A program made the translations under genes and the position numbers. This document shows, in pieces, positions 1,455 to 26,358 of a stretch of DNA of 34,239 bases. The stretch is taken from positions 1 to 34,239 of the forward strand of contig JAGLEV010000002.1 in the NCBI GenBank assembly GCA_023144895.1, in the 5' to 3' direction. How positions within the stretch are numbered: the first letter of the stretch is position 1; each line of letters begins with the position of its first letter. This stretch comes from Thiotrichaceae bacterium (GTDB lineage Bacteria > Pseudomonadota > Gammaproteobacteria > Thiotrichales > Thiotrichaceae). The notes beneath the pieces are model-generated. The model was not told the DNA's origin. It did no database searches and worked only from the letters and a program-made list of their open reading frames with translations.

Positions 1455-1991
1455 AACCCTTTAGCCCTAACTCAACTAAAAAATGCTGCATCAAGACGTA
1501 ATTTTTTACTGCTACCTCTAGCCGCAATAATAAGCCAAGTTATACCCACTAGCGCACTAGCTCTTGATAGTATCACCCCGCCATCAAAAACAATAGATCC
1601 TGGTTGTCCACTGAATAGTGGTGGACCAACATTATTAAACTCAAGCTGGCGAGTAGGCACTATCTATGGGAATAGAATTCCTTATGCTATAAAAATCATT
1701 ATGAAGATTAACTCTGGCTCACTCACAGGAAACTCTGGGTGTAATAAATACACAGCCGTCTTTAAACGAGTCGGTTATACTGGATTTAGAGTGGTCAATA
1801 TTCAACGCGGCAAACAAGGTTGTAAAGTTGTTCGTCCTGTTGAAGGTGGACCAACCATTAATGTCGGTGATCTTGAAGGTGGGTTCCTGCGTACCTTGCG
1901 AAGAATGGGTAGCGTACAACAGTTTAAAAATAAACTAGTATTTTATAACCGTAGTGGTGAGCGTGCTATTATTTTAACTAAAAACACTTAA
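1452..1991 (+). CDS. META-domain (HslJ-like) protein with Tat signal
   Basis: Exported protein of about 179 residues, role unknown. The N-terminus carries a twin-arginine motif, S14-R-R-N-F-L-L, then a hydrophobic stretch and a likely cleavage site after SALA (residue 37), so a folded or metal-loaded protein exported by Tat is likely. The mature part fits the META/DUF306 fold seen in HslJ: a LLNSSWRV start, the GNSGCNKY core motif with Cys97, a second conserved-type Cys (GKQGCKVV) and a C-terminal L-V-F-Y strand. Related E. coli HslJ is a heat-inducible lipoprotein linked to novobiocin resistance, but that role should not be transferred. An upstream in-frame ATG at 1422 would add ten residues. 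The gene stands alone after the AT-rich block, with a hairpin just downstream. Confidence 0.75.
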   Translation: MNPLALTQLKNAASRRNFLLLPLAAIISQVIPTSALALDSITPPSKTIDPGCPLNSGGPTLLNSSWRVGTIYGNRIPYAIKIIMKINSGSLTGNSGCNKYTAVFKRVGYTGFRVVNIQRGKQGCKVVRPVEGGPTINVGDLEGGFLRTLRRMGSVQQFKNKLVFYNRSGERAIILTKNT

Positions 1992-2005
1992 TTACTTAGA
2001 TTCAA

Positions 2006-2041
2006 TTGCCCGTATCTGATCTAATTTATCAGTGCGGGCAA
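2006..2041 (+). terminator. Hairpin after META-protein gene
   Basis: The arms TTGCCCG (2006-2012) and CGGGCAA (2035-2041) are perfectly complementary, with an inner CTGAT/ATCAG stem at 2016-2020 and 2028-2032. It starts 14 bases after the stop codon. There is no T-run after it, so it may be a 3' stabiliser or an imperfect terminator. Confidence 0.4.
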
Positions 2042-2066
2042 AGTCAAAAACAAAAAGCATCTAACA

Positions 2067-2282
2067 ATGATCCTAGAAAGTCTCATCACTTGCCCTCTTT
2101 GTTCACACCAAGAGCAACAACAAATGCTCGAAAATGTGAATCAACAATATTATCGCTGTCAGAGCTGCCAACAACAAATTAAGGCAAGCGAAAAGAGTTG
2201 CTGTATTTATTGCTGTTATAGCAATACTCCCTGTCCTACCGCACAAATTACAGGCTCTGCATGTTGTGCTAGTGATGATTAA
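2067..2282 (+). CDS. Cysteine-rich GDCCVxC-like small protein
   Basis: A 71-residue protein with eleven cysteines, so probably metal- or thiol-active. The first half is a zinc-ribbon pattern: C9-P-L-C12 and C31-Q-S-C34. The second half contains SCCIYCCYSNTPCPTAQ (residues 44-60), which closely resembles the core of the GDCCVxC-domain family (GDCCVxCSYG..PCPP.Q), a group that includes selenoprotein members. Here the leading G-D is K-S and the usual C-S-Y-G is C-C-Y-S. The protein ends S-A-C-C-A-S-D-D. There is no signal peptide or membrane segment, so it is predicted cytoplasmic. No strong ribosome binding site is visible before the ATG. The family function is unknown. The family assignment comes from recalled motif similarity only. 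Confidence 0.65.
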   Translation: MILESLITCPLCSHQEQQQMLENVNQQYYRCQSCQQQIKASEKSCCIYCCYSNTPCPTAQITGSACCASDD

Positions 2283-2442
2283 TCATGTTTTAGTCAACAC
2301 TCTTTAAGCGTATTTTTGGGATAAGCTCTTTTTATTTATTGCCCGTTCATAAAAAATACTACCCATCGATGAAATATGTCGTGTACTATCCTTGACCAAG
2401 GGAAAAGCGATAAGCTCTATGTTGTGGCTATTGGTAAAAATC

Positions 2443-2460
2443 TTTACTTTTCAAAGTAAA
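2443..2460. promoter_or_regulatory. Inverted repeat upstream of the exbB operon
   Basis: TTTACTTT and AAAGTAAA form a perfect 8-bp inverted repeat around TC, about 110 bases before the exbB-like start codon. It is A/T-rich and could be an operator or chance. It does not resemble a canonical Fur box closely enough to name one. Confidence 0.3.
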
Positions 2461-2568
2461 TTCAAATAGTAACCCACTACTAAGGCATTAATTCCTAAAG
2501 AAAGTGTGACAACATCCAGTGCCACACTATGACAATAATAAAAATGACCTAAAGGTAAAGGTAGTTAA

Positions 2569-3273
2569 ATGATTGAATTTGTTAAATCTGGTGGATTTTT
2601 AATTCTCCCGATTCTGATCTCATCTGTACTAGCTCTCGCTATTATCATTGAGCGTTTCCTCTCTCTCAATTCACGACGCATTATGCCTGAAAAGATTATC
2701 AGGAAAGCACATAAGATTGCACTAGAGCCTAACCCTTCTGCAAATTCTGATATTCCATTGATTGCAAAAAGCTCATTAATTGGCAAGATTTTAGCCTCAG
2801 GCTTACAAAATAGTAGTCAACCACGACATATTATGAAAGAAAGCCTAGAAGAAACAGGTCGCCATGCTGCTCATCAAATGGATAAGTACATGACGGCACT
2901 GGGTACGATTGCCACAATTACACCATTACTTGGCTTGCTTGGAACGGTTATTGGTATGATTCAAGTTTTTAGTGTTATTACCGAGCTAGGTGTTGGCAGT
3001 CCAACCGATTTAGCGGGAGGTATATCAACAGCATTGATTACGACGGCAACGGGTATTTCTGTTGCTGTTCCTGCACTCATTTTTCATCGCTATTACAAAG
3101 GTAAAATTAATGACTATGTTGTACGTATGGAATACGAAGCATCGAAATTAATTGAATTAACAAACTCTCCAAATAAGCGAACAGTAGCAGAAAAACCTCG
3201 TCCAGCTGCTCCAACACGCAATCCTAATGCTCCAGTACGTCGCCGTCCAAATCCCAACCCTCGGAATACGTAA
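2569..3273 (+). CDS. exbB: MotA/TolQ/ExbB-family proton channel
   Basis: Inner-membrane proton channel subunit of 234 residues, the usual ExbB2-like length. A first transmembrane segment (about residues 10-30) is followed by a cytoplasmic loop. Two more segments follow, containing the family signatures LGTIATITPLLGLLGTVIG and ISTALITTATGISVAVPAL. The C-terminus (about 207-234) is an unusual proline/arginine-rich tail. It is the first gene of a tight operon: its stop overlaps the exbD-like start by one base (TAATG). With ExbD it should harness the proton-motive force. The partner is not visible, because no tonB or receptor lies nearby. The arrangement exbB-exbD-lpxK-trm112 is familiar from pseudomonads, where it is not part of the classical TonB locus. 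The start has a reasonable AAAGGTAG site before it. Confidence 0.88.
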   Translation: MIEFVKSGGFLILPILISSVLALAIIIERFLSLNSRRIMPEKIIRKAHKIALEPNPSANSDIPLIAKSSLIGKILASGLQNSSQPRHIMKESLEETGRHAAHQMDKYMTALGTIATITPLLGLLGTVIGMIQVFSVITELGVGSPTDLAGGISTALITTATGISVAVPALIFHRYYKGKINDYVVRMEYEASKLIELTNSPNKRTVAEKPRPAAPTRNPNAPVRRRPNPNPRNT

Positions 3274-6198: not shown

Positions 6199-7212
6199 TT
6201 ATGACCTTAATCCTGTGGCTAATTCTAGTAATTTTTTCGATAAATGCTCATACAGCTCTATCGATTCAGTCTGATCTAGCTGAATATGAGTATTAACCAA
6301 GTCTAACCAATGTTGATTTTCTGAATCATTATTTAATAGGTTAATTAGCTTTATATTACTAATAACACCATAATTCCCCGTTGCTTTCATCTGATCAGAA
6401 CGTTTCACCAAAGCTTTCGCTTGCTCACAAAGAATTTTATTCAGTAAATAAATTTTAGTTGATGGGAATTTAAAGCCCATACTCATATGCTGACCTTGCT
6501 GATTTAGGCTAACAACAATATCATTATCTTTTATATTTTGTTCTGCAATGAGATCAGAAATATAATTAAGTATCGCTCTGGCTGATGACTGTGATGTCTT
6601 TTTAATATCGAGTTGACAACCAATGTCATACCAGTCCAGTGCTTTGATATGCTCATTTCTCAAGCGATGCTCTAAGGCATTAATGATAAGGTCAACATCG
6701 TGACCAATCGCATGTTGCTGAGTAAAGTGGAGATTAATCATTCCTTCTTCAAATAAAACATTCTTCTGAATATCAAGGTCTTTATACTCTGCAAGTGCGG
6801 ATAAAAATATTTCCATAAAAGAGAGCAATTCAACTTTATGCTCCCAATCTTCAAACCAATAATTACACTCAAATGATATTTGTAGTTCTTGTTCACTATT
6901 GAGGAAGTGATAGTAGCTACTATTTTCATAGCCCAAATCATCACTACAATCACAGGTAATACGAATCTCGTGTGGAAACTCTCGCCCCGAGCGATAACGC
7001 ACATCCTCTAACGATAAATCTTTTGCTAGAGAAAACCTAGATTCTAACTGTGTTGGATTTTCTAAATTTTTTACATTTTCTATCATGTAATTCTTACCTT
7101 TAAAATTAAGAACACCTTCAGTTTTAGGTTTCTGATCAGCAATACATAACTTAACCTTATTGTGAACAGTCATTAGGTGAGGTGAATAGTCTGCACTTTT
7201 CATTGGGTTCAT
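6199..7212 (-). CDS. Hypothetical cytoplasmic protein, 337 aa
   Basis: I do not recognise this protein. It has no signal peptide, no membrane helix and no catalytic motif that I can name. It is rich in charged residues (E, D, K), with clustered Cys near ITCDCSDDLGYENSSYYHF (about residues 85-103) and a likely helical C-terminal half (LELATGLRS end). An alternating hydrophobic pattern at ELQISFECNYWFEDWEHKVELL suggests a beta sheet then helix in the first half. The length, codon usage like its neighbours and the lack of a competing frame support a real gene. It is monocistronic and faces the exbB-flavoprotein operon. A Met four codons into the protein is an alternative start. Confidence 0.65.
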   Translation of the reverse strand: MNPMKSADYSPHLMTVHNKVKLCIADQKPKTEGVLNFKGKNYMIENVKNLENPTQLESRFSLAKDLSLEDVRYRSGREFPHEIRITCDCSDDLGYENSSYYHFLNSEQELQISFECNYWFEDWEHKVELLSFMEIFLSALAEYKDLDIQKNVLFEEGMINLHFTQQHAIGHDVDLIINALEHRLRNEHIKALDWYDIGCQLDIKKTSQSSARAILNYISDLIAEQNIKDNDIVVSLNQQGQHMSMGFKFPSTKIYLLNKILCEQAKALVKRSDQMKATGNYGVISNIKLINLLNNDSENQHWLDLVNTHIQLDQTESIELYEHLSKKLLELATGLRS

Positions 7213-7323
7213 TTGTTCTGCTTATATTGGTATTTAAGGGGCTGAACAGGATAAAAAACGACCTGATCAAAGATGTCTGTCCTTTAAGCCGAGAATAAAC
7301 ACCTTTCATCGACTTAGTTATCA

Positions 7324-7551
7324 TTAAGCAAATATGATGCCAAACCCTATTTTAAATTTCAATTTAACCCAAAAATACAAAATATAAAAACAAATAAGGC
7401 TAATAAATACACAGTTTGAACACAAAACAATCAAGTTATTGTCAGCGGACTGAATGAAAATTATAAGCAAACATATCAATAGGCTATAAGTTATACAGCC
7501 CCAATAGCTCCACTTATTACGAAGTAGACATTCGGTGACAAAATACGACAT
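7324..7551 (-). CDS. Possible small membrane protein, 75 aa
   Basis: An open frame rich in Leu, Ile, Phe and Cys, with two stretches that could be membrane helices (about residues 20-35 and 42-62) and basic residues at the ends. AAGAGA lies upstream of the ATG. It sits in an otherwise empty 560-base gap. AT-rich non-coding DNA often yields hydrophobic frames like this, so it may be spurious. Apart from this frame I see nothing in 7213-7771. Confidence 0.25.
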   Translation of the reverse strand: MSYFVTECLLRNKWSYWGCITYSLLICLLIIFIQSADNNLIVLCSNCVFISLICFYILYFWVKLKFKIGFGIIFA

Positions 7552-7771
7552 TGGTTAACATCTCTTTCTTAATAGTTAATGTTAAGAGAGCGACCGTTTA
7601 CAGTCAAATTGATACTACACATAGCTTCAATCTTTAGTTAATGAATATTTAGACCTATGCTGATTATAACGACAACACACCTTGAGCATCCGCTGTTTTT
7701 AACACGATGAAACTAGGTGATTACAACCCATTGTGTATTGACCGTAACATAAGGTCATAAGGATTATAACC

Positions 7772-8926
7772 ATGAAAACTAATAGTATTAAGCAAGGTGG
7801 TCACAAGATAGCCATTATGATAACGCGTAGTAATGTTGGTGGTGCTCAAATACATATTAAGGATATTGCCTTAGGATTAAAGTCATACGGTAATCAGGTT
7901 TTTATTATTGTGGGAGAGCTAGGAGAGTTCACTACGCTACTGGATGAGCTTAATTTAGATTATCACTATATACCTGAACTACAGCGATCAATCAATATAG
8001 TCAAAGACATCAAAGCCTACTTCAGCATTAAAAAATATTTAAAAAATATTAAACCCGACCTACTCTCAACGCATTCATCAAAAGCAGGAATGCTAGGACG
8101 TATTGTGGCAAGACAACTGTCTATTCCCGCCACCTTTACTGCACATGGCTGGTCTTTTACTGATGGCGTTAGCCCTATTAAGAAAATAATTTATAAAACG
8201 CTAGAGCGATTAGCATCACATCTGCCTGGAAAAATCATCACAGTGTCAAAATTTGACTACCAACTTGCCATAAAGTACAAGATTTGCCCTAAGGAAAAAT
8301 TAGTAGCAATACAAAATGGTATGCCTGATATTGCTCCTGAACTTTATGCCAACCCAAGCACACAGCCACCTAAAATAGTGATGGTCGCTCGTTTTTGCGA
8401 ACAAAAAGATCACATGTCATTGATTCATGCGCTTTCTCATATTAGCTCAACTCACTGGGAGCTAGAATTCATTGGTGATGGTGATAGTCGAGCGCTGCAA
8501 GCAAAAATTAACTACCTCAGCCTTAAACAACAAATTAAAATTTCTGGCTACCAATCGAATATTAATGAAATTCTATCGACTAGCCAAATAGTTGTACTGA
8601 GTAGTCACTGGGAAGGTCTGCCATTAACGATTATTGAAGCAATGCGAGCAGGTTTGCCAGTCATTGCTAGTGATGTTGGTGGTGTTAGTGAGGCTGTTAT
8701 TGATGGAAAAACGGGATATTTAACCCATTCCGTTGATGAGCTAGCAACACGCTTAGAATTACTGATTACTAACCCAATATTGCGCCAACAACTGGGATCA
8801 CAAGCACGCATTGCTTATCAAAACAATTTGACACTGAAACAACAGCTCAATAAAACCTTTGATGTTTATGATCAAGTCATGACGGATCACACAGCAAAGC
8901 CTCATAGTAAACCATCCATAGCATAA
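7772..8926 (+). CDS. Glycosyltransferase family 4 (GT-B fold)
   Basis: A 384-residue cytoplasmic, probably membrane-associated retaining glycosyltransferase, likely in exopolysaccharide, capsule or O-antigen assembly. The N-terminal Rossmann half shows SNVGGAQIHIKDIALGL and STHSSKAGMLGR. The C-terminal Glycos_transf_1 half shows VARFCEQKDH, the loop SSHWEGLPLTIIEAM with the E-x7-E nucleotide-sugar motif, then GLPVIASDVGGVSEAV and GKTGYL. The length is normal for the family. The start is supported by AAGGAT eight bases upstream. It stands alone with gaps on both sides; a second surface-polysaccharide set lies at 23932-28607. The sugar donor cannot be read from the sequence. Confidence 0.88.
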   Translation: MKTNSIKQGGHKIAIMITRSNVGGAQIHIKDIALGLKSYGNQVFIIVGELGEFTTLLDELNLDYHYIPELQRSINIVKDIKAYFSIKKYLKNIKPDLLSTHSSKAGMLGRIVARQLSIPATFTAHGWSFTDGVSPIKKIIYKTLERLASHLPGKIITVSKFDYQLAIKYKICPKEKLVAIQNGMPDIAPELYANPSTQPPKIVMVARFCEQKDHMSLIHALSHISSTHWELEFIGDGDSRALQAKINYLSLKQQIKISGYQSNINEILSTSQIVVLSSHWEGLPLTIIEAMRAGLPVIASDVGGVSEAVIDGKTGYLTHSVDELATRLELLITNPILRQQLGSQARIAYQNNLTLKQQLNKTFDVYDQVMTDHTAKPHSKPSIA

Positions 8927-9329: not shown

Positions 9330-12300
9330 ATGAAGAAACTGCTTGCAGTAGCACTCCTGCTTAATATCTTATTTTTATCAGGCTGCTTTAGCTCATCAGC
9401 TGAAAATTCTGCTACAGAGGATAATACCCGTCAGCAATCATCAACCACTCCAAAACCTAGTCAAAACCAGTGGAAAAACTTGATCAAGACTCATAGCAAA
9501 GGAGTCGTGAGTAAAGATTCACAGATTGTTATCAACTTTAATCAGCCAATGATCAACAGTGATCTTGTGGGTAAATCGGCTGAAACCGTCTTTAGCATAG
9601 AACCTAAAGTGAAAGGTAAAGCAACTTTTGTATCAACACAGCAGATTGTCTTTGCCCCAGAGCAACTTTTATTATCAGGTGCTCGTTACACTATCCACTT
9701 AAAAGATGATGCAGCCTTAATTCCAACCATTGATACAACGCATCAATTTATGATCCAAACGATCCCGATGGAATATCAAATTACGATCAATAAGATTAAA
9801 GTCAATGGTCAAAACAATAGCCTGATGACCTTATCAGGTACTGCAATATTCTCAGACATCATTAAAATTGATCAAATTAAAAAAATAGTAACCGCTAGCT
9901 TGCAGGATAAGAAGCTAGCAGTGAACTGGTCGGGTGGTAGTGCTCAGTCAAAGTTTACATTTACCATTGAAAATATTAAGCGTGATAGCTTTAGTACCGA
10001 TTTACGCCTAATGTGGAATGGTGAGTCTATTGGTATTAAAAGTAAGGGTAGTAGAGAAATTACCATCCCTTCAAGCAACGTATTGAAAGTCCTGAATGCA
10101 AAGCTTATTCGATCTGATAAATCCAAGGCTTATATTCAAGTCACATTATCTGATATACAAAATAGTCGTCAACAACTGGATGGCTTAGTTCGTTTGGAGC
10201 AAATTCCTGATAAAAATAATAAAACAGCCAAGAAAGTAAAACTTAAATACACTATTGATGGCAATATTATTAAGGTTTACCCTCTTAAGGTCATCAAAGG
10301 GAAATTCAACCTTGCGATTGATGCCACCTTAAAATCTAAGTCAGGTAATAAGCTTGGTAAAGTATTTAATCAAACGATTACCATTAAAGATCAAAAGCCT
10401 TCAGTGCGCTTTGTCGGTAAAGGGCAGATCCTACCTAATAATGACACTTTAACCGTTCCTTTTGAGGCAGTACATGTTAATGCGGTGACAGTTACTGCTT
10501 TTCTTATTAAAGATGAGAATATGGCGCAGTTCTTTCAAAACAATCAGCTTGCAGGAAATAGTGAACTTGAGCGTGTAGGACGTTATCTTTGGCACAAAAA
10601 GATACCACTCAACCCTGCCAACCCTGCTCAAGCTAACCGTTATAATCTGGATGTTAGTGAGTTAGTTAAATCACACCCTAGCGGTTTATTTCGTTTAAGC
10701 CTATCCATCGATCGTCGCTTCTCAACGTATGAGTGTAAAGACGAAACACCAACGAAGGCGAGAGACAAAAAACTAAAAAATAATGAAGACCTGCATACGA
10801 GTGAACTCAGCGGCTGGGATGGTATTGAAAGCTATTATGATGATGGTAATCAAAATAGCGGAAAATGGGCAGATCGTTTAAAGCCTTGTAGTGACGCTTA
10901 CTTTAACTATGATTCAAATCCTGTGACAGATCACAAGAATGTTATTGCTAGCAATATCGGTCTACTCGCTAAGCAAGATGGTCATGGCAAAATGTTAGTT
11001 GTTGCAACGGACTTAGCCACAACAGAGCCACTCGCCAATACACTATTAAGTATTTATAACTTTCAAAACGATTTATTAGCAACAAGCGTTACTGATAAAG
11101 AAGGCATTGCACATATTAAACTCAATAAGACTCCTTTTTTATTAACCGCTAAAAAGGGTGATGATAAAGCTTATCTTAAATTGAATACAGCCACCGCTCA
11201 GTCAATAAGTCACTTCGATGTGGGTGGTGATAAGAGTAAAAAAGGCGTGAAGGGCTATATTTATGGTGAGCGTGGTGTTTGGCGACCAGGTGATGATATT
11301 CACCTCACCTTGGTTGTCTACGATAAAGGTAAAACGATTCCTGCCAACCATCCTGTGACTATGCGCCTAATCGACCCTAGCGGTGTTGTCAGCCAAACTC
11401 TCATCAATACAAGCCCTGTCAGTAATTTTTATCAATTTAAGTTAAAGACTGATGAGGATGCAACGACTGGAAAGTGGTTAGTTAAGGCACAGCTAGGGGG
11501 TAATGAATTTACCAAAATGCTGAATATTGAAATGATACGCCCTAACCGTCTTAAAATTGATTTGGATTTTGCTACAAAAGCACTGCATGGTTATAAAACA
11601 TTACCTACAGGAAAACTCTTCTCTCAGTGGCTACATGGTGCTAAAGCCAATGGTTTAAAAACTAAAGTATCGGTTCGATTTAGAGAAAAAAGAACAAAAT
11701 TTACTAGTTTTACTGATTATCAGTTCGATGACCCTTCACGCTCACTAGATAGTGCTGAAACTACTTTGTTAGAAGGTCGATTAGACGAGGAAGGCAATCT
11801 TAGCTTTGATAAACAATTCAATCCCAAGTCACAGTCACCAGGCATGTTAAGTGCATGGTTTACTAGTCGTGTCTTTGAGCAAGGGGGTGGTTTTAGTACT
11901 AGCAAACACTTCCTTGATTATCATCCTTATGAAAACTATGTAGGTATCAAGCTACCAAAAGGTGATGCCAGTCGCAATATGCTCTTAACGGATGAAGATC
12001 ATACGCTTGAAATTGCCTCAGTCGATGCTAATGGTGTCGCTAGTAACTTAGATGCTGTACAAGTAACCTTATATAAAATTAACTGGAAATGGTGGTGGGA
12101 TAAAAGTTCAGACTCACTCAGCTCCTATAGTAATGCTAATCATAGTAGCAAGTTACAACAAAGCATTGTAAAAACTAGCAATGGTCGTGGGCAATGGAAA
12201 TTTAAAATTAACTATCCTGACTGGGGGCGTTATTTAATTCGTGCCTGTGACGTTTCAGGCAAGCATTGTACGGGTAAAACCTTATATATGGATTGGCCCG

Positions 12301-15200
12301 GATGGGCAGGTCGTGCACAAGAAGAAGGGTCTAGTGCTGCCAGTACATTAAGTCTAACCACCGATAAGAAAGAATACAAAGTCGGTGAAACTGCCATTAT
12401 TCAAGCACCTAAGGCAACTCAGGGACGGGCATTATTAACCGTAGAAAGTAGTAATGAAATCCTGCAGCAACAATGGATAATTTTTGATAAAACACGTCAA
12501 CAAGTCTCCTTGCCGATTACTGCAAAAATGGCACCCAATGTGTATGCCAATATTACTGTATTGCAGCCTCATAATAATCGTAAAAGTGACCGCCCTATTC
12601 GCATGATTGGTATTGTGCCTCTAAAAGTTTTAGATCCTAAAACACATCTTACCCCTGTCATCACGGCTAAGGATGAATGGAAACCTAAATCGAAACAAAC
12701 CGTACATATTAAAGAAGCCAATAATAAAACCATGACCTATACCCTCGCTCTTGTTGATGAAGGTTTATTAGGGCTCACTCGCTTTAGAACACCTAATTTG
12801 CATCAATACTTTTACCGTAAAGAAGCACTGGGTATTAAAAGCTGGGATTTGTTTGACCAAGTTGTAGGTGCCTATGGTGGCAATATTGAACGTATTCTTG
12901 CCCTCGGTGGTGGCGATGATGTGCAATTAGATGATGCTGCCAATAAACCCAAGCGCTTCCCTCCTATCGTGCAATTCTTTGGTCCCTTTACTTTAAAGGC
13001 GGGTGAGAGTAAGCAACATGAGCTTGAGCTACCTCCTTATATTGGTGCAGTACGTCTAATGGTCGTTGCGGGTGATCAAGGAAGCTATGGGCTTACAGAG
13101 AAATCAATCTTTGTACGTGATCCACTGATTATTCAACCCAGCTTGCCTCGTATACTCAGTAGCAATGAGGAAATGAATATTCCCATTACTGTTTTCTCTA
13201 CACGAGATGACATTAAAGACGTTGAAATTACGATAGTGACGGATGATCTCATCAGCACGGAGAGTGATAAAACAACGGTACACTTTGATAAAGTGGGTGA
13301 CAAACTTGGCTTTATTCGTATCAAAACAGGGTCTAAGACAGGGAAATCCAAGCTCACTATTACAGCAACCAGTGGTCAGTATCAATCAAGCAGTGAAATC
13401 TTTATTGATATTCGTCACCCTAACCCTCTAACGCATACCATTGCTGATTATACAGTGAATGCTCAAAGTGCCTCTGATCTCACCATTAAATCTCATGGTC
13501 TTGCTGGGACGAACACCTTCAACCTTGAAGTCTCAACGATTCCACCTCTGGGATTGCATAAGCATCTTGATTATCTCATTAAGTATCCTCATGGTTGCTT
13601 AGAACAAACAACCTCTGCGGCATTCCCTCAATTATACCTTAGTCAGCTTGTTGATGGCTCTGCGGCTAAAGCTAAAGAAACTGAAAACAATGTTGCTGCG
13701 GCTATCGATAAGTTAAAAACCTTTCAAAATATGAAAGGTGATTTTAGCTATTGGCCAGGTGGTAATCGTCAAAACCTTTGGGCAAGCTTATATGCGGGTC
13801 ATTTCTTAGTGGAAGCAAAGAAACAAGGCTTTGAGGTGAATGATAATATGCTCAACTCATGGTTAACTTACCAAGTAAAACAAGCGAATAATTGGCTGCA
13901 AGGCAATAAGAATTATGCCTATATTCAAGCCTATCGCTTATATGTTCTTGCTTTAGCAGGAAAACCAGAAATTGGTGCGATGAATCGCTTAAAGGAAAGT
14001 AATCAGCGAGGCTATAAATCACGCTGGTTATTAGCAGCAGCTTACAAATTAAGTGGGTTAGATACTGCGGCTAAAAGTGTGGTTGAAGGCTTAATTGCTA
14101 ACCCTGAAATAGCGACTGAGAAAAATAGTGATACCTTTAGTAGTAATCTGAGTGACCTAGGTATTGTTCTTAATGCGTTAAGTACTCTAGAAAATAATGC
14201 CGATGCTAAGCACTATATCAAAGCAATCGCTAAGGAGTTAAGTAAAGAACATCAAAATACTCATGGCATTGCATGGGCTCTTGCTGCTGTCTCACACCAT
14301 GTCGGTGGTAAGGAAGGTTCTGGTGTTAAAACAACATTAACGCGTGATGGTAAGAATCCAGAAGTAATCAATAGTAAAAAGAGCTTTATTAGTCGTCAAT
14401 ACACAGGTATTGCTAAGGAAGACCTAAAGGTTAAACTCGATAATCCGAGTGCAAAAATGCTCTATACCCAGCTAACCAGTAGTGGTATTCCTGCTTCGGG
14501 TGATGAAAGTGAAGTACAAAATGGCATGAAACTTACCATTGAGTACTTTGATGTCAATAGCAAAGAAAAGCTAGATATGAGTCAACCGATCACTCAAGGT
14601 CAAGATATTCTGGTGACGATTACGATGAGCCAAGACTACCAAGACCGAGCTGAAAATCTTGCATTAACTTATATTGTTGCAACAGGTATGGAGATTCATA
14701 ATCCTAATGTTGGCAATAATAAAGCACTGGATCACCAAAATGTACGTGATGATCGTATCCATAGCTATTTTGCTCTTAATCGTGAGACTCCGATCAAGTT
14801 GAGCTTTATTGTTAATGCTGCCTATGCAGGCAAAGCTTACCTTCCTGCCGTTCAAGTACAGTCAATGTACCAACCTGAAAAGAAAGCACGTATTAAAGGG
14901 CAATGGGTTCATGTTGCCAGAGATGCTGGCACTAAGGCAAAAGCTCCAGTATCGGCTAAGAGTACGATTAATGCGGTTGCGGTGATTGACATTAAAAAAG
15001 CGAAGGTTATTCCTCGTAAAGCTTGGTTATATAATGAGCCTAATGATGAAGGTAAATCGAAGATGTATTTGATTAAAAATGACCGTGTTGAAATTCTGAA
15101 AGAGCTCTCTAGTGAGGAAAAAGGTCAGTGGAGCTTTATACGCTTCTATGGCAGTAAAACGGTTGAAATGTGGCTAAAAACAGAACATCTTGCAAAGTAG
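9330..15200 (+). CDS. Bacterial alpha-2-macroglobulin lipoprotein with C-terminal SH3-like domain
   Basis: A 1956-residue periplasmic protease-trap lipoprotein. The signal peptide ends in the lipobox L-S-G-C (Cys19); the residue after Cys is Phe, which does not suggest inner-membrane retention by an Asp+2 signal. The order is as in bacterial macroglobulins: repeated MG beta domains; an MG2-type segment (GYIYGERGVWRPGDDIHLTL, about 644-663); the A2M core (FFGPFTLKAGESKQHELELP); the thioester motif C1423-L-E-Q1426 within a helical TED; and a receptor-binding-like end. Residues 1885-1956 look like an SH3b-type domain (AWLYNEPNDEGKSKMYLIKN, then GQWSFIRFYG and MWLKTEHL). At 1956 residues it is larger than E. 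coli YfhM (about 1650). The usual partner pbpC (PBP1c) is not adjacent. AAGGG precedes the ATG. Confidence 0.93.
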   Translation: MKKLLAVALLLNILFLSGCFSSSAENSATEDNTRQQSSTTPKPSQNQWKNLIKTHSKGVVSKDSQIVINFNQPMINSDLVGKSAETVFSIEPKVKGKATFVSTQQIVFAPEQLLLSGARYTIHLKDDAALIPTIDTTHQFMIQTIPMEYQITINKIKVNGQNNSLMTLSGTAIFSDIIKIDQIKKIVTASLQDKKLAVNWSGGSAQSKFTFTIENIKRDSFSTDLRLMWNGESIGIKSKGSREITIPSSNVLKVLNAKLIRSDKSKAYIQVTLSDIQNSRQQLDGLVRLEQIPDKNNKTAKKVKLKYTIDGNIIKVYPLKVIKGKFNLAIDATLKSKSGNKLGKVFNQTITIKDQKPSVRFVGKGQILPNNDTLTVPFEAVHVNAVTVTAFLIKDENMAQFFQNNQLAGNSELERVGRYLWHKKIPLNPANPAQANRYNLDVSELVKSHPSGLFRLSLSIDRRFSTYECKDETPTKARDKKLKNNEDLHTSELSGWDGIESYYDDGNQNSGKWADRLKPCSDAYFNYDSNPVTDHKNVIASNIGLLAKQDGHGKMLVVATDLATTEPLANTLLSIYNFQNDLLATSVTDKEGIAHIKLNKTPFLLTAKKGDDKAYLKLNTATAQSISHFDVGGDKSKKGVKGYIYGERGVWRPGDDIHLTLVVYDKGKTIPANHPVTMRLIDPSGVVSQTLINTSPVSNFYQFKLKTDEDATTGKWLVKAQLGGNEFTKMLNIEMIRPNRLKIDLDFATKALHGYKTLPTGKLFSQWLHGAKANGLKTKVSVRFREKRTKFTSFTDYQFDDPSRSLDSAETTLLEGRLDEEGNLSFDKQFNPKSQSPGMLSAWFTSRVFEQGGGFSTSKHFLDYHPYENYVGIKLPKGDASRNMLLTDEDHTLEIASVDANGVASNLDAVQVTLYKINWKWWWDKSSDSLSSYSNANHSSKLQQSIVKTSNGRGQWKFKINYPDWGRYLIRACDVSGKHCTGKTLYMDWPGWAGRAQEEGSSAASTLSLTTDKKEYKVGETAIIQAPKATQGRALLTVESSNEILQQQWIIFDKTRQQVSLPITAKMAPNVYANITVLQPHNNRKSDRPIRMIGIVPLKVLDPKTHLTPVITAKDEWKPKSKQTVHIKEANNKTMTYTLALVDEGLLGLTRFRTPNLHQYFYRKEALGIKSWDLFDQVVGAYGGNIERILALGGGDDVQLDDAANKPKRFPPIVQFFGPFTLKAGESKQHELELPPYIGAVRLMVVAGDQGSYGLTEKSIFVRDPLIIQPSLPRILSSNEEMNIPITVFSTRDDIKDVEITIVTDDLISTESDKTTVHFDKVGDKLGFIRIKTGSKTGKSKLTITATSGQYQSSSEIFIDIRHPNPLTHTIADYTVNAQSASDLTIKSHGLAGTNTFNLEVSTIPPLGLHKHLDYLIKYPHGCLEQTTSAAFPQLYLSQLVDGSAAKAKETENNVAAAIDKLKTFQNMKGDFSYWPGGNRQNLWASLYAGHFLVEAKKQGFEVNDNMLNSWLTYQVKQANNWLQGNKNYAYIQAYRLYVLALAGKPEIGAMNRLKESNQRGYKSRWLLAAAYKLSGLDTAAKSVVEGLIANPEIATEKNSDTFSSNLSDLGIVLNALSTLENNADAKHYIKAIAKELSKEHQNTHGIAWALAAVSHHVGGKEGSGVKTTLTRDGKNPEVINSKKSFISRQYTGIAKEDLKVKLDNPSAKMLYTQLTSSGIPASGDESEVQNGMKLTIEYFDVNSKEKLDMSQPITQGQDILVTITMSQDYQDRAENLALTYIVATGMEIHNPNVGNNKALDHQNVRDDRIHSYFALNRETPIKLSFIVNAAYAGKAYLPAVQVQSMYQPEKKARIKGQWVHVARDAGTKAKAPVSAKSTINAVAVIDIKKAKVIPRKAWLYNEPNDEGKSKMYLIKNDRVEILKELSSEEKGQWSFIRFYGSKTVEMWLKTEHLAK

Positions 15201-21071: not shown

Positions 21072-21989
21072 CTAAGCTCGTGGGTGATGTTGCTGATGTA
21101 ATTCTTGTAATCGTGCCTTAGCAACATGAGTATAAATTTGTGTTGTTGATAAATCAGTATGTCCTAGTAATAACTGTACGACTCGTAAATCTGCACCATG
21201 GTTCAATAAGTGTGTAGCAAAGGCATGACGTATTGTATGGGGTGATATTTTTCTATTAATACCTGCCTGTACTGCATGTTTCCTTATAAGATACCAAAAA
21301 GCTTGCCGTGTCATTCCTGAGCCACGCTGAGTAATGAACAAGTCATTACTGACTCCCTTGCCAAGGATTAATCTAGGACGTGATTCTTCTAAGTAAGCTT
21401 TTATTGAATCAACCGCTTCATCCCCCATAGGTACTAAGCGCTCTTTGCTTCCTTTACCTAGCACTCGCACCACACCATTGGCTAAAGAACAGCGTGACAG
21501 CTCTATACCAATCAACTCACTGACTCGTAAGCCTGTGGCATAAAGCAATTCCAGCATCGCCTTATCCCTTAAGCCTTCTGCTGTTTCTACATTGGGAGCT
21601 GATAAAAGAGCTAAGACTTCAGGCTCACTTAAAGTATCAGGAATATTACGTACTAATTTTGGTGTACTAATTAACTCCACAGGAGAGTCATTCACTAATT
21701 TCATGCGTAATAAATAACGATAAAATTGGCGCAAACAGGATAATAAACGCGCCACACTACTAGCTTTAAATTTTTCCGCAAAACACCATGCAAGATAAGA
21801 CTGGATCTGCTCCTTTGTTACGACTACCAGATCAACAGGTACATTGACAGAATCATCCTGTGCCAACCAAGTCGAGAATTGCCGCAAATCACTCTCATAG
21901 GCCATTAAGCTATGTTCACTCAAGCCTTTAGTTGACCATGCTTCATCAAGAAATTCAGCAACAAGAGGAACAGCATTAGCAACACTCAT
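21072..21989 (-). CDS. xerD: Site-specific tyrosine recombinase XerD
   Basis: A 305-residue recombinase resolving chromosome dimers at dif together with XerC. The N-terminal SAM-like core-binding domain includes LSEHSLMAYESDLRQFSTWL. The catalytic domain has every residue of the RKHRHY set: R155 (ATGLRVSEL), K179 (GKGSKERLVP), H251 and R254 (HTIRHAFATH), H277 (LLLGHTDLSTTQ) and Y286 (IYTHV). Length and the adjacent dsbC both favour XerD over XerC. Its ATG overlaps the end of the acetyltransferase gene by four bases (ATGA), so it is translated as part of a run of four genes beginning at 23772. Confidence 0.95.
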   Translation of the reverse strand: MSVANAVPLVAEFLDEAWSTKGLSEHSLMAYESDLRQFSTWLAQDDSVNVPVDLVVVTKEQIQSYLAWCFAEKFKASSVARLLSCLRQFYRYLLRMKLVNDSPVELISTPKLVRNIPDTLSEPEVLALLSAPNVETAEGLRDKAMLELLYATGLRVSELIGIELSRCSLANGVVRVLGKGSKERLVPMGDEAVDSIKAYLEESRPRLILGKGVSNDLFITQRGSGMTRQAFWYLIRKHAVQAGINRKISPHTIRHAFATHLLNHGADLRVVQLLLGHTDLSTTQIYTHVAKARLQELHQQHHPRA

Positions 21990-22420
21990 GACAGTATTTT
22001 CTTCATCATAATATGAGGAATACCTGCGTCATCAAAGACATCACCATACTCAGTAAAGCCGAATGGCTGGTAAAATATTTTGATATAACATTGCGCACCT
22101 AATAAGAGTGTCTTTGCCTCTAATACCTGCTGAGAGTATTGGATTGCATAGTGCATTAATTCAGTGGCGATACCTTGGCGGCGATAACTTTTAGCAACGA
22201 CAAGTCTCCCTAGTTTCACGACATTATTTTCCTGTGCAACTAAACGTAAAGTGGCGATCATCGTTTCTTGATCTTGTACACAACAATGTATTGCCAGACT
22301 ATCGAACTCATCCTCTTCTAAATCAGCAGGGACATTTAACTCTTGAACAAAAACGTTAATACGCAAATCTAAGGTTGCATCCCATAATACAGAAGGCTGT
22401 ATAAAGTGAAGGTATTCCAT
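21986..22420 (-). CDS. GNAT family N-acetyltransferase, ElaA-like
   Basis: A 144-residue acyl-CoA-dependent acetyltransferase with an unknown acceptor. The acetyl-CoA loop is seen in VVKLGRLVVAKSYRRQGIAT (motif R-x2-G-x-A). The C-terminal part, AQCYIKIFYQPFGFTEYGDV followed by DAGIPHIMM, closely follows ElaA-type proteins (Y-x2-FYxxFGF, GIPHI.M). It is cytoplasmic. It sits between the ketopantoate-reductase-like gene (nine-base gap) and xerD (four-base overlap), so co-transcription is expected even though the functions seem unrelated. Confidence 0.85.
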   Translation of the reverse strand: MEYLHFIQPSVLWDATLDLRINVFVQELNVPADLEEDEFDSLAIHCCVQDQETMIATLRLVAQENNVVKLGRLVVAKSYRRQGIATELMHYAIQYSQQVLEAKTLLLGAQCYIKIFYQPFGFTEYGDVFDDAGIPHIMMKKILS

Positions 22421-22429
22421 TGTGATAGC

Positions 22430-23200
22430 TTAAGTCATCTGCTCGGCAATAGCGAATAAAACAGGGACTTCAATATTCGCTGACTTGGCTACATCTAGGG
22501 CGCGTTGTAAACGAATAGGCGCACTACGCCCCATACATTGATGCTCAGGATCACCCTCAAAAGCAACGACCATCGCATCAATAAGCGCTTGATTATCTAC
22601 TGTCACTCCACCTAATAAATGTGATTGTAGTTTGGCAATATCGTCACTAACAGACCGAGCAAAATCCTGATGATTTTCCCAAAGGTTCGCCACAGTTCCA
22701 GGTGCTTTTAAGCCCGCGATATTACTAGTCAAAATATAGTAATTTTTACGCAGTAATTCAAAGGTAAGCTGTTCCGTTGATTCTAACAGGGTATTAGGGA
22801 TAGATAAGGCATCTAAAGCACTTGATAATAAGGTCGCATGAGGGCCATAAAGCGTAGTGGGAACAACAACCTTAACATCTTGCCCTGATTTTTTTTCAAA
22901 CCAAATGGATGCAATCGTTATATCACTATAACTGTGTTTTTGCCAATCAGGTGGTAGTAATTCATTTTGGATCAGCACTAACTGAGAACGCCACTGCTCT
23001 GGTATTTGTGGTAATAAAATATCAAGATCTGACTCCCCTACGGCTAAAACAACCAAGGCAGGGTTAGGTAATGCTATCGCTTCTGCTTCCATATCCATAC
23101 TACGTATTACAGGATAAACTGGATGCCCTAAACGTAAAAAACCACGAGCAATCACAGAACCAATCTCACCTATACCAATAACAACAACCGACGACTTCAT
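22430..23200 (-). CDS. Rossmann-fold ketopantoate-reductase-like protein
   Basis: A 256-residue cytoplasmic protein with an N-terminal NAD(P)-binding fold, VVVIGIGEIGSVIARGFLRLGH, matching G-x-G-x2-G. Later strands are VVLAVGESDLDILLPQI and LVLIQNELLPPDW. The helical C-terminal half has RKNYYILTSNIAGL, reminiscent of the K-x3-N region of PanE/ApbA. It is shorter than PanE (about 300), and the PanE substrate residues are not clearly kept, so the substrate is open. It could be a specialised dehydrogenase or a non-catalytic relative. It is the second gene of the run ending in xerD. A purine-rich AGGATGAGAG precedes the ATG. Confidence 0.6.
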   Translation of the reverse strand: MKSSVVVIGIGEIGSVIARGFLRLGHPVYPVIRSMDMEAEAIALPNPALVVLAVGESDLDILLPQIPEQWRSQLVLIQNELLPPDWQKHSYSDITIASIWFEKKSGQDVKVVVPTTLYGPHATLLSSALDALSIPNTLLESTEQLTFELLRKNYYILTSNIAGLKAPGTVANLWENHQDFARSVSDDIAKLQSHLLGGVTVDNQALIDAMVVAFEGDPEHQCMGRSAPIRLQRALDVAKSANIEVPVLFAIAEQMT

Positions 23201-23259: not shown

Positions 23260-23772
23260 TCAATTGCCCGTATTGGCTTCGATACACTGCTTCACCATCG
23301 CTTTTCTTTGCTCATTATTCAGCTCTTTTTCTTCTGCGGCGACAATATTACAAGCTTCTATTGTATCGGGGTCGACAACGCTTGCCTTGCTTTCTTTTAA
23401 GCTATTAAAATTATCCTGTTGTACTCTTTGTTGAGTACGAGAAACACATTGAGCAACCGCTTGATGAATATGAGCATTAGTCACACCGGCTTGACGACTT
23501 GATCGAATACATTGGTCTTTAATTTCTCGTTCAGTACCATCAGAAAGTACTTGTTCACCCACTAATTTATATTGATCACTCACAACCTCTTGAGGAGAGG
23601 GTTTATTTTGTTGAGCAGACTCAGATTCAACTCTTGAGGAGTGGATTATTGTATTAACAGAATCATCACTCCAGAGTTTTTCTGCCCATTCAAACTTCAT
23701 CCCCAATGCAACCGCAATAATAAAGAGGATTAACCCAATAAGCATAGCAGTAAGTAAAGTCCGAAAAGTCAT
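23260..23772 (-). CDS. Membrane-anchored protein with two C-x20/21-C segments
   Basis: I do not recognise this 170-residue protein. An N-terminal membrane helix (residues about 6-24, LTAMLIGLILFIIAVALGM) would act as an uncleaved anchor, leaving a charged, mostly helical domain, probably periplasmic. That domain has two similar units: DQC-IRSS...AVAQC (20 residues between Cys) and EAC-NIVA...MVKQC (21 residues between Cys), each ending in a V-A/K-Q-C pattern, as expected for helical hairpins closed by a disulfide. It is the first gene of the run leading to xerD, with dsbC just beyond, which fits a disulfide-bonded product but does not prove one. A possible terminator for the upstream gene lies at 23819-23879. 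Confidence 0.65.
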   Translation of the reverse strand: MTFRTLLTAMLIGLILFIIAVALGMKFEWAEKLWSDDSVNTIIHSSRVESESAQQNKPSPQEVVSDQYKLVGEQVLSDGTEREIKDQCIRSSRQAGVTNAHIHQAVAQCVSRTQQRVQQDNFNSLKESKASVVDPDTIEACNIVAAEEKELNNEQRKAMVKQCIEANTGN

Positions 23773-23931: not shown

Positions 23932-25068
23932 TTATAATGACCAGTATTTACGTCCTTGGCGACCTAAGTTGAGCTTACTACCTGATTTAAAACGTAACCA
24001 TCGTGAAAAACGTTTTTGACTGTAATCTCGATAGTAGTTTGGACTCACTACGTCGGTAAGAGCATTAACTTTTAATAAATTAATGGTCGTATTGCTCACT
24101 TGGCTTAATACACTGAGTTGTTTTTTTATTTTATCTAACTGTACCGTGCTCTCAGGAACCACGATAAGGCTCGTTGTAGCCACTCTATGCAGCAATAGAG
24201 TGTCTGAAAAACCTCGTACAGGTGATGAGTTTATAATGACATAATCAAAATATTTTTTTGCCTTAGAAAGAAACGAACTCATGTTCTCATGAGACAAAAG
24301 GTCAATCGGTGAATGGTTTCGTAACGAGCCACCTGTAATAACAAACATCTTATTGTTCGATGTTAGTTTTTTAGTAATATCATTGAGCTTGGCATCACCT
24401 AATAGAAAGTTAATTAACCCTTGATTGTTCGCTACGGATAAATGAGTATGTAATGTTGGGTGACGAAAATCAGCATCAACCAATAAGACTTTTGATCCTA
24501 ATTCAGCAATAAAATAAGCAAGATTAGCAGCGCTCATTTCTTTGCCTTCATTAGCATTAATGCTACTCACTAAAATGACTTTATTTTCATTAGGCTTCTG
24601 ACTATGAGCTAATACTGTTGCTGTAATACGGTATGCCTCGGCAACACGGGAGTAAGGATCACTTAATAACTTTGCCTTAGCAAAAAAATGTTCTCCTTGA
24701 GTCACAATAGGTATGACACCAATCACAGGAACACCACTCATTAGCTCAATCGCATGAGATCTGACACCTTGACGATGATGCCAGACATTAATATAAAGTC
24801 CCATTAATAAGCCTGCAAGTAAAGCCAGTAGGAGAATCCAGCCAGTGGTAATATTTAAGGGTTGAAGAACAAGGTAGATAACAATACTCAAAATAGAAAT
24901 AAAAAGACTACTAAAATAGAGTGCTAGCTTGTGGTGATGAAAAAATTGCTTTAATACATCCACTCTTTTTTTCCAAAGAGGAATGCAGATGGATGGAATG
25001 TTTGAAGACTCAAAATTGGATTGAGAATGCTGTCTGGCTGGAGAATCAGAGTGCTGTATGTGTAACAT
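23932..25068 (-). CDS. BY-kinase-like ATPase with degenerate Walker motifs
   Basis: A 378-residue relative of the CpsD/CapB/Wzc-type tyrosine kinases that control polysaccharide export. Two membrane helices (about 49-69 and 76-94) precede a P-loop domain, but the large periplasmic Wzz segment is absent. The Walker A region is NANEGKEMSAANLA, where E177 replaces the Ser/Thr that follows the P-loop Lys176. Walker A' (VLLVDADFRHP) is intact. Walker B is FDYVIINSSP, with N280 in place of the catalytic Asp. The C-terminus has Y345, Y346, Y349 and Y375, fewer than a classic tyrosine cluster. ATP hydrolysis is therefore doubtful, and a regulatory pseudo-ATPase is likely. Substitutions were confirmed at codon level (GAA and AAC). 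Neighbouring surface enzymes fit a glycan role. Confidence 0.78.
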   Translation of the reverse strand: MLHIQHSDSPARQHSQSNFESSNIPSICIPLWKKRVDVLKQFFHHHKLALYFSSLFISILSIVIYLVLQPLNITTGWILLLALLAGLLMGLYINVWHHRQGVRSHAIELMSGVPVIGVIPIVTQGEHFFAKAKLLSDPYSRVAEAYRITATVLAHSQKPNENKVILVSSINANEGKEMSAANLAYFIAELGSKVLLVDADFRHPTLHTHLSVANNQGLINFLLGDAKLNDITKKLTSNNKMFVITGGSLRNHSPIDLLSHENMSSFLSKAKKYFDYVIINSSPVRGFSDTLLLHRVATTSLIVVPESTVQLDKIKKQLSVLSQVSNTTINLLKVNALTDVVSPNYYRDYSQKRFSRWLRFKSGSKLNLGRQGRKYWSL

Positions 25069-25299: not shown

Positions 25300-26358
25300 T
25301 CAAATTTTAGGTATATCCACCGCCTTATCAAACCAGTGCCACTTCCCTTTCAATACCTTATCCAAGCTATTTATACGCTCTTGACTAAGAATAGAACCTT
25401 CAATTTTACGAATCAATATTTGCTGAATATTATTAGGAAACTCCTTAGCAATCTGCCTATAAACTTCTGGGTCATTCTCGCCACTATCCCCAATCAAAAT
25501 AAACTGATGTTGAGGATAGCGATTTAAAATTCCTCGAATAGTCATTAGCTTATATTTTTTAGAAGACTTAAAAAAATTAATCAAGCTTGAATCTTGAAGC
25601 CGAAAGTGGCGTAAAGAAACAGTGCCTTTAGGATAATGTGACCAGAGAAAATCTTTTAAACTAGGGTATAATTGCCAAGGCGATGCTGAAACATAATGAA
25701 AATAAGCGCCTTTATCTGCCAGTTTTTTATAATAAGCAGGCAGACCTTCTGGTGCCTTATAAGGTTCTACAAAGGTATGACGCATCAAAGCCTTTTTATT
25801 CAAAACCTCGCTAATCTTAATCGTATCATCAATATCAGAAATAACACTCAAACCCTGTTTGGGAATAAACAGCACTTGTCCTGTAAACTTGCGTTTATCT
25901 TTTTCTGGAAGAATAAGCTGGTAATCAACCCAGCCTGATTGATTACCCACTTTGCAAGTCGTCGCTAGTTGACTATAGCTATGACCACCTAAAACAGTTT
26001 TATTCAGTTCTAGCGTCTTATCATTAAGATTGATTTTTAGCTTTTTGTACCACTGATTATCCACTAAAAACCAAGCAATACGTTGACGAAAAAGATCAGA
26101 CTCTGTTTGCTCTTTGCTTAAACCAAATTTTGTCATCAACTCTGCAACCAACTTGGTACTGGCATTCACTCTCAGGCTGTTTTCTTCAAACTCAAAAACC
26201 CAAGAATGAACAGGTACTTCACAGCGCCCATCTTCAAGAATATGGGCTGCTGTTGGAAAGAATACAACATCCTCATCAGGCTTAATTGATGCACCATAAC
26301 TCACGGGCACGAGTAGTAAGGATAAAAAAGCCCAACCTTGTTTGATAAAACCCAACAT
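25300..26358 (-). CDS. App1-family phosphatase domain protein (DUF2183)
   Basis: A 352-residue secreted or periplasmic phosphatase-like protein. The N-terminal signal peptide (FLSLLLVPVSYGAS) is followed by a beta-rich half, then a HAD-like catalytic domain with the D-x-D-x-T motif D175-I-D-D-T179 in ISDIDDTIKIS, VSASPWQLYPSL and a GDSGENDPE acidic motif. These are hallmarks of the App1/DUF2183 family, whose yeast member is a phosphatidate phosphatase; the bacterial substrate is unknown, possibly a lipid or polyphosphorylated compound. TAGGAT precedes the ATG. The gene is divergent from the methyltransferase with only 64 bases between starts. Confidence 0.85.
   Translation of the reverse strand: MLGFIKQGWAFLSLLLVPVSYGASIKPDEDVVFFPTAAHILEDGRCEVPVHSWVFEFEENSLRVNASTKLVAELMTKFGLSKEQTESDLFRQRIAWFLVDNQWYKKLKINLNDKTLELNKTVLGGHSYSQLATTCKVGNQSGWVDYQLILPEKDKRKFTGQVLFIPKQGLSVISDIDDTIKISEVLNKKALMRHTFVEPYKAPEGLPAYYKKLADKGAYFHYVSASPWQLYPSLKDFLWSHYPKGTVSLRHFRLQDSSLINFFKSSKKYKLMTIRGILNRYPQHQFILIGDSGENDPEVYRQIAKEFPNNIQQILIRKIEGSILSQERINSLDKVLKGKWHWFDKAVDIPKI

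What the first reader, a model, noticed from the sequence alone, without database searches (positions are those of the whole stretch)
23932..25068. BY-kinase-like protein with both ATP-site catalytic residues replaced
The domain keeps Walker A' (VLLVDADFRHP) and the P-loop lysine, but has Glu instead of Ser/Thr after the lysine (GKEMS) and Asn instead of Asp in Walker B (VIINSSP). It also lacks the periplasmic Wzz domain and has few C-terminal tyrosines. Loss of two independent Mg-ATP residues with an otherwise intact fold suggests a pseudo-ATPase that may regulate glycan assembly by binding rather than phosphorylation.
Basis: partly seen in the sequence, partly recalled or inferred. Interest (0 to 1): 0.62.

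Follow-up and report, generated by a model that had tools for sequence, protein, structure and literature searches.

The report
Stripped-down Wzc kinase, ATP site lost
A bacterial tyrosine-kinase-like membrane protein, of a type that normally helps make surface polysaccharide, has lost its outer domain and, in this species, two key ATP-site residues as well, so it probably works as a non-catalytic membrane protein, a variant of the recently described bacterial pseudokinases.

Summary
The 378-aa ORF at 23932-25068 (-) is a BY-kinase-fold protein with NANEGKEMS (E for Ser/Thr), intact Walker A' (VLLVDADFR) and VIINSSP (N for Asp). Of 129 distinct kinase domains examined it alone has either change. 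It is not soluble: two predicted TM helices remain with about six residues between them.

The genome belongs to the family of Cocleimonas (Thiotrichaceae). Two congeners carry 387-389 aa orthologues, also without the periplasmic domain, but with canonical GEGKS and VIID. Beside the same downstream gene, other genera usually have a full-length 750-793 aa Wzc, and two congeners have that gene with no kinase next to it. This looks like stepwise erosion: periplasmic domain lost, then ATP-site residues in this lineage, whole gene elsewhere. The tyrosine-poor tail and altered EX2RX2R motif are older, shared by the orthogroup.

The fold is predicted intact (Z 34.8 to CapAB) and no significant rate excess is seen, though power is low. 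Best reading: a retained, membrane-anchored BY-pseudokinase; main rival: a gene on its way out. BY-pseudokinases (EcpK, HfsB) are already published, so: new variant of a known kind.

The parts
23932..25068 (-). BY-kinase-like membrane protein, 378 aa
24865..24924 (-). predicted TM helix 1 (residues 49-68), counterpart of Wzc TM1
   Evidence: homology to full-length TM1 is detectable in the two congeners (median z 8.4 and 5.2) but not from the window protein itself (z 0.4)
24772..24846 (-). predicted TM helix 2 (residues 75-99), counterpart of Wzc TM2; six residues separate the two helices, where 15 full-length relatives have 382-396 between TM cores
24619..24639 (-). EX2RX2R position: EAYRITA (E144, R147, second Arg replaced by A150)
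24532..24561 (-). P-loop INANEGKEMS (residues 170-179); E177 (codon 24538-24540) in place of Ser/Thr
24463..24489 (-). Walker A' VLLVDADFR (residues 194-202); D198, D200 and R202 kept
24220..24240 (-). Walker B VIINSSP (residues 277-283); N280 (codon 24229-24231) in place of Asp, S282 in place of Pro
23962..23976 (-). C-terminal KLNLG (residues 365-369), a short tail motif of the orthogroup
23260..23772 (-). downstream 'partner': 170-aa protein with one hydrophobic N-terminal segment and two Cys pairs (C88/C109, C141/C163), no Pfam family
21072..23200 (-). flank used for synteny: 256-aa protein (sub-threshold F420_oxidored match), GNAT acetyltransferase, XerD

Best explanation
The protein descends from a full-length Wzc-type (PCP-2a) polysaccharide co-polymerase kinase of an orthogroup seen here in Thiotrichaceae. 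Shown by comparison: in three species of this genus the periplasmic domain (about 380-400 residues) is missing between TM1 and TM2, leaving a TM hairpin joined to the BY-kinase domain; in the window's species the residue after the P-loop Lys (S to E) and the Walker B Asp (D to N) have also changed. Inferred: E177 puts a carboxylate where a hydroxyl normally helps bind Mg-phosphate, and N280 removes a conserved acid of the site, so Mg-ATP binding and phosphotransfer are very probably lost. Inferred: the gene is retained as a non-catalytic, membrane-anchored BY-pseudokinase that acts by binding, either in an assembly with itself or by joining or capping the rings of the genome's two canonical Wzc proteins, perhaps with the small envelope protein encoded just downstream. 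The binding partner is not shown.
For: Fold intact: AlphaFold2 mean pLDDT 80.5, kinase-domain blocks mostly 90 or more; VIA-align Z 34.8, rmsd 2.0 A over 238 residues to CapAB 3bfv, next family (MinD) Z 18.7. Only one of 129 with E and N; 32 of 39 columns conserved at >=85% are kept, the Asps and Arg of Walker A' among them. Orthologues with canonical sites and also without the periplasmic domain in G002 and G003; support 1.0 for the three together. Partner gene directly downstream of a Wzc-type kinase in 17 of 18 loci of other genera fetched, 15 of the 18 being complete at 750-793 aa, and in Cocleimonas flava. TM1 of the congeners matches TM1 (z 8.4, 5.2); TM2 plus linker matches TM2 (z 15.5 for G002, 7.4 for the window). 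Not visibly relaxed: window-only against G002-only changes 30:24, p 0.50; against G003 29:17, p 0.10; XerD gives 19:13 and 12:4. Second codon positions far more conserved than third (0.70 vs 0.33 to G002). Walker-dead Wzc K540M forms octamers, and Wzc without the periplasmic motif-3 helices still forms octamers with normal autokinase activity (PMC8285477 passages).
Against: One species only; no second genome of this lineage shows the E/N pair, so retention after the loss is not demonstrated. The rate and codon tests cover the whole branch, before and after the ATP-site change, and have little power. Two congeners lack the kinase beside a retained partner, so the gene is dispensable in this genus. 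The ring-interface motif EX2RX2R lacks its second Arg here and in 36 of 36 of its clade, which argues against a canonical octamer. Conserved positions outside the two named are also lost (P282S, G330N), and with 7 departures the window is fourth highest of 129 (three canonical domains have 10, 9 and 8; median 2). The window's own TM1 shows no direct similarity to full-length TM1 (z 0.4). No binding partner was tested.
Confidence: 0.58

Rival explanations
1. Gene in decay: after loss of the periplasmic domain the kinase lost its role in this genus, the ATP site drifted, and the ORF has simply not yet been broken; the end state is the clean absence seen in two congeners.
For: Partner retained with no kinase and no remnant found by tblastn beside it in G001 and G005; changes at other conserved positions (P282S, G330N, T168S) and the fourth-highest number of departures of 129; window differs at 21 of 81 positions invariant in six relatives; window-only changes outnumber those of each congener, not significantly; window branch 0.63 against about 0.39 in the kinase tree.
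Against: ORF intact at 378 codons; no significant rate excess (p 0.50, 0.10) and XerD shows the same tilt; Walker A' Asps and Arg kept; predicted fold intact.
Confidence: 0.27
2. Still a nucleotide-binding or even active enzyme with an unusual site: Lys176, Walker A' Asp198/Asp200 and Arg202 remain, and E177 might serve as a metal ligand.
For: G175, K176, D198, D200, R202 all kept; NCBIfam still scores it over the TIGR01007 cut-off.
Against: S/T and D are present in all 128 other domains; CapB1 of S. aureus has the GKS and Walker B Asp (alignment) and binds ADP-Mg but showed no activity (PMC3795738 passages and introduction), so kinase activity can be absent even without such changes.
Confidence: 0.1
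3. Assembly or sequencing artefact.
For: Draft assembly of 103 contigs.
Against: E177 needs at least two base changes and the two sites lie about 310 bp apart; no stop or frameshift in the frame; the short form is seen in three separate assemblies.
Confidence: 0.03

Closest known systems
EcpK of Myxococcus xanthus and HfsB of Caulobacter (BY-pseudokinases; PMC12004946: abstract, passages and section 9 seen)
   Same: BY-kinase fold without residues needed for catalysis; proposed to act by binding rather than phosphorylation.
   Different: EcpK and HfsB are stand-alone pseudokinases that bind a PCP-2 lacking a kinase (EpsV, HfsA); EcpK has none of the Walker motifs. The window protein has two TM helices and its own juxtamembrane segment, keeps Walker A' and the P-loop Lys, and no PCP gene was found next to it.
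Wzc / PCP-2a polysaccharide co-polymerase kinases (full-length relatives in Thiotrichaceae, e.g. Cocleimonas flava L111)
   Same: TM1, TM2, juxtamembrane segment and BY-kinase domain; same downstream gene.
   Different: No periplasmic Wzz/GNVR domain; ATP-site S/T and D lost. (The tyrosine-poor tail is shared with its full-length relatives.)
CapB1 of Staphylococcus aureus (PMC3795738: passages and introduction seen)
   Same: BY-kinase for which its authors found no activity and suggested a pseudokinase role.
   Different: CapB1 is the cytoplasmic half of a split pair and its crystal structure binds ADP-Mg; its inactivity is not explained by missing Walker residues.
Fused PCP-2/pseudokinase proteins attributed to Cuthbertson et al. 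in PMC12004946 (e.g. Sinorhizobium SMc01795)
   Same: Pseudokinase domain on a TM protein in one chain.
   Different: Those are described as keeping the transmembrane/periplasmic part; here the periplasmic part is gone. Their sequences were not examined here.

Membership tests
BY-kinase (catalytic) | BY-kinase fold (MinD/Mrp-type P-loop domain) | tested here: met
   Z 34.8 to CapAB, 34.3 to Wzc kinase domain; phmmer 6e-19 to 4jlv
BY-kinase (catalytic) | Walker A with GK[S/T] | tested here: not met
   GKE; 128 of 128 other domains have S or T
BY-kinase (catalytic) | Walker A' hhhDxDxR | tested here: met
   VLLVDADFR
BY-kinase (catalytic) | Walker B hhhD | tested here: not met
   VIIN; 128 of 128 others have D
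BY-kinase (catalytic) | C-terminal tyrosine cluster | tested here: inconclusive
   4 Tyr in last 40 residues; clade median 2 (n 36), outside clade median 6 (n 92)
BY-kinase (catalytic) | EX2RX2R ring-interface motif | tested here: not met
   EAYRITA; second Arg absent in 36 of 36 clade members, present in 77 of 93 others
BY-kinase (catalytic) | Autophosphorylation on tyrosine | not testable with these tools
   needs purified protein
PCP-2a (Wzc) | two TM helices flanking a large periplasmic domain | tested here: not met
   two predicted TM helices present, periplasmic domain absent
BY-pseudokinase (EcpK/HfsB type) | BY-kinase fold lacking catalytic residues | tested here: met
   P-loop Lys and Walker A' are kept, so the loss is partial
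BY-pseudokinase (EcpK/HfsB type) | stand-alone protein paired with a PCP-2 that lacks a kinase domain | tested here: not met
   predicted membrane-anchored; no Wzz/GNVR match in the 26 of 33 window ORFs that were scanned. One stand-alone Wzz+GNVR protein of 387 aa lies on another contig
BY-pseudokinase (EcpK/HfsB type) | direct binding to the PCP | not testable with these tools
   needs two-hybrid or co-purification

The most novel reading that the evidence does not exclude
A whole Thiotrichaceae Wzc orthogroup has been leaving phosphorylation control in steps: first the second Arg of EX2RX2R and the tyrosine-rich tail (with a short [K/R/G]-[L/I/V]-N-L tail in many members), with an envelope partner in several genera; then the periplasmic domain; then the ATP site. 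The end product is a new kind of BY-kinase-derived membrane scaffold with no periplasmic reach and no catalysis, which works with the Cys-paired partner rather than with a polysaccharide polymerase.
Probability: 0.2. Interest if true: 0.6.

Novelty: new variant of a known kind. Interest (0 to 1): 0.42.

Why it matters
It gives a natural series (full-length kinase, kinase without periplasmic domain, same with two ATP-site residues lost, no kinase) in one bacterial family, with the same downstream neighbour. That makes it possible to ask which part of a Wzc protein matters for what. It also shows a naming risk: the protein passes the NCBIfam cut-off for 'tyrosine autokinase' although its site is very probably dead.

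Tried and rejected
Considered and rejected: soluble CapB/CpsD-type protein (two predicted TM helices); strain-level point mutation or sequencing error; a family-wide conserved E/N substitution (orthologues are canonical); that low tyrosine content marks the pseudokinase (orthogroup-wide).

Led nowhere: the search for related loci with the window protein alone found no named relative; Pfam, NCBIfam and PDB profile searches gave the partner no family (two PDB hits at E 0.15-0.16); sigma-70-like promoter matches were no more than in shuffles (14 vs mean 13.5); the local four-gene tree does not resolve the order of the congeners (supports 46-73); no nearer relative with the E/N pair was found, so dN/dS after the change could not be computed.

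Choices that affect counts: the 129 domains are what remained of 147 aligned stretches (E<=1e-15) after removing identical or contained ones; (50 of 63 genomes with a match at E<=1e-60) loci were kept for the 30 best of 52 matches, so not every family member's motif was read; alignment A4 for the structure job used 51 relatives of 61 available (60 listed plus L111), the rest left out to save space. The partner count (23 of 63) is a lower bound: G006, whose kinase DNA is contained in the Cocleimonas flava locus L111, was not hit, yet L111 shows a partner with a broader profile (E 4e-39). MAFFT did not align TM1 with TM1 across the missing domain; that claim rests. The XerD of G003 used is cut by the contig end (187 aa). 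The roles of S/T and D in Mg binding are from general knowledge of P-loop proteins (recalled); the 2008 CapAB paper was not held.

Full report
What is there. The ORF at 23932-25068 on the minus strand encodes 378 aa. Pfam AAA_31 (44.3 bits, cut-off 27) and NCBIfam TIGR01007 (110.8 bits, cut-off 108.05) place it among BY-kinases; the best solved relatives by sequence are CapAB, Etk and Wzc.

The N-terminus is not simply missing its Wzz domain: two hydrophobic helices are predicted (residues 49-68 and 75-99) with six residues between them, where 15 full-length relatives have 382-396 residues between TM cores. In the two congeneric orthologues the first helix matches TM1 of full-length Wzc relatives (median z 8.4 and 5.2 against 15 proteins) and not the TM2 region (z 0.0 and -0.4); the TM2-plus-linker stretch matches TM2 (z 15.5 for G002, 7.4 for the window; G003 not tested). 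The window's own TM1 is too diverged to show this directly (z 0.4), and MAFFT did not place it there. Weak Wzz-model matches at the N-termini of the G002 and G003 orthologues (E 0.009 and 0.004, below the cut-off) agree. So the simplest history is loss of the periplasmic domain from between the two TM helices.

Where it comes from. The 63 genomes of the window's order are all of one family with 8 genera. One of them, G006 of genus g2, carries DNA that is contained in the Cocleimonas flava locus L111, and NCBI places Cocleimonas in Thiotrichales, Thiotrichaceae. The best named matches are Cocleimonas flava and two Thiothrix records. Its genome has two other Wzc-type kinases with canonical motifs (C78, 757 aa; C41, 737 aa, in a row with a Wza-type gene and a low-molecular-weight tyrosine phosphatase gene), and one stand-alone Wzz+GNVR protein of 387 aa on C89.

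The erosion series. The gene downstream (23260-23772, one hydrophobic segment and two Cys pairs; call it the partner) was used as an anchor. Its three-sequence profile finds it in 23 of 63 genomes, a lower bound since Cocleimonas flava has one that only a broader profile found. Of those 23, the 18 from other genera show a Wzc-type kinase immediately upstream on the same strand in 17 (15 complete at 750-793 aa, two cut by a contig end); the exception, L107, has none there. In the four g2 loci fetched and in Cocleimonas flava the kinase and partner are followed by xerD and dsbC, as in the window, with other genes between in some. In the window's own genus of six genomes: G002 and G003 have the short kinase with canonical GEGKS and VIID; the window has the short kinase with GKE and VIIN; G001 and G005 have the partner with an M17-aminopeptidase-type gene upstream (domain tested in G005) and no kinase or tblastn-detectable remnant between them; G004 has neither at the thresholds used. 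G001 is 69% complete and G004 is in 570 contigs, but the absences in G001 and G005 are read from continuous sequence. Whether these are one loss or two is not resolved.

What is old and what is new. A tree of 129 distinct kinase domains puts the window, its two short orthologues and full-length relatives in one clade of 36 (support 0.99). In all 36 the second Arg of the EX2RX2R ring-interface motif is A, S or T, against R in 77 of 93 outside; the last 40 residues hold a median of 2 Tyr (n 36) against 6 outside (n 92; same-family proteins outside the clade: median 4, n 26); and a [K/R/G][L/I/V]NL motif near the C-terminus is in 22 of 36 and 0 of 93. So the tyrosine-poor tail is old. The S-to-E and D-to-N changes are new: no other domain examined has them. 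One other domain, in L175, has Arg in place of the P-loop Lys.

Is it a live gene? The predicted fold is intact (mean pLDDT 80.5) and superposes on CapAB at Z 34.8, 2.0 A over 238 residues, and on full-length Wzc including TM2 (7nhr, Z 34.2, rmsd 4.0 A, model residues 71-353), well above MinD-type proteins (18.7) (Foldseek). The window keeps 32 of 39 columns conserved at >=85%; its seven departures (N280, S282, N330 and four milder ones) are the fourth-highest number of 129, where three canonical domains have 10, 9 and 8 and the median is 2. It differs at 21 of 81 positions invariant in six relatives. Relative-rate counts against a four-sequence outgroup give 30 window-only against 24 G002-only changes (p 0.50) and 29 against 17 for G003 (p 0.10); XerD from the same genomes gives 19:13 and 12:4. 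Branch lengths are 0.63 for the window and about 0.39 for the congeners in the kinase tree, but the window is also long for the neighbour genes. I read this as no clear relaxation, with low power; it does not date the ATP-site loss.

How it most likely works. Shown: architecture by prediction and homology, lineage-specific loss of two ATP-site residues, retained frame and neighbour. Inferred: no productive Mg-ATP binding, no phosphotransfer. Known from others: Wzc K540M, which cannot phosphorylate, forms octamers, and Wzc without its periplasmic motif-3 helices still forms octamers with normal autokinase activity while polysaccharide production is abolished (PMC8285477, passages). A short, ATP-dead form would then be a membrane ring or ring subunit with no reach into the periplasm. 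The lost EX2RX2R Arg is against a canonical octamer. The most likely role is binding: scaffold for, or cap on, another Wzc or the partner.

Compared with what is known. BY-pseudokinases are in print: EcpK of M. xanthus, with HfsB of Caulobacter as a second case, and fused PCP-2/pseudokinase proteins attributed there to Cuthbertson et al. (PMC12004946: abstract, passages and section 9); CapB1 was proposed as a pseudokinase in 2013 (PMC3795738: passages and introduction). I also saw passages of PMC11986026 and PMC8394532. The window protein differs in being a membrane hairpin without periplasmic domain, with partial motif loss, and with a canonical counterpart in sister species. In my searches (otherwise listings only, and one search showed 12 of 41 papers) I saw no description of a Wzc lacking only its periplasmic domain; this covers open-licence PMC papers only.

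Verdict. Observation confirmed; interpretation partly supported. New variant of a known kind; interest moderate.

Noticed in passing
window 23260-23772 (-); alignments A2, L093-L110: Uncharacterised protein with one hydrophobic N-terminal segment and two Cys pairs spaced 21-22 residues apart (C88/C109 and C141/C163 in the window), found in at least 23 of 63 family genomes and directly downstream of a Wzc-type kinase in 20 of those 23 (window included); matches no Pfam family.
   Followed up: partly
L091 (G005 C49) 6220-8544; L092 (G001 C105) 983-3135: Two congeners keep the partner but have no kinase between it and the gene upstream (M17 aminopeptidase in G005), with no remnant found by tblastn.
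   Followed up: yes
C-termini of the 36-member clade, e.g. window 23962-23976: Short tail motif [K/R/G][L/I/V]NL in 22 of 36 clade members and 0 of 93 others, together with absence of the second Arg of EX2RX2R in 36 of 36.
   Followed up: partly
G000:C89:4241-6155 (L229): A stand-alone Wzz+GNVR chain-length protein (387 aa) lies next to a Cas6-type gene (PF09559, E 4e-48) on the same strand; odd neighbours.
   Followed up: no
window 25300-26358 (-): The gene upstream of the kinase encodes an APP1-type phosphatidate phosphatase catalytic domain (PF09949, E 9e-47); no match to it in the fetched stretches of G002 and G003. That APP1 is best known from yeast is recalled.
   Followed up: no
window 9330-15200 (+): Bacterial alpha-2-macroglobulin-type protein of 1956 aa, next to a glcD-type gene.
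   Followed up: no
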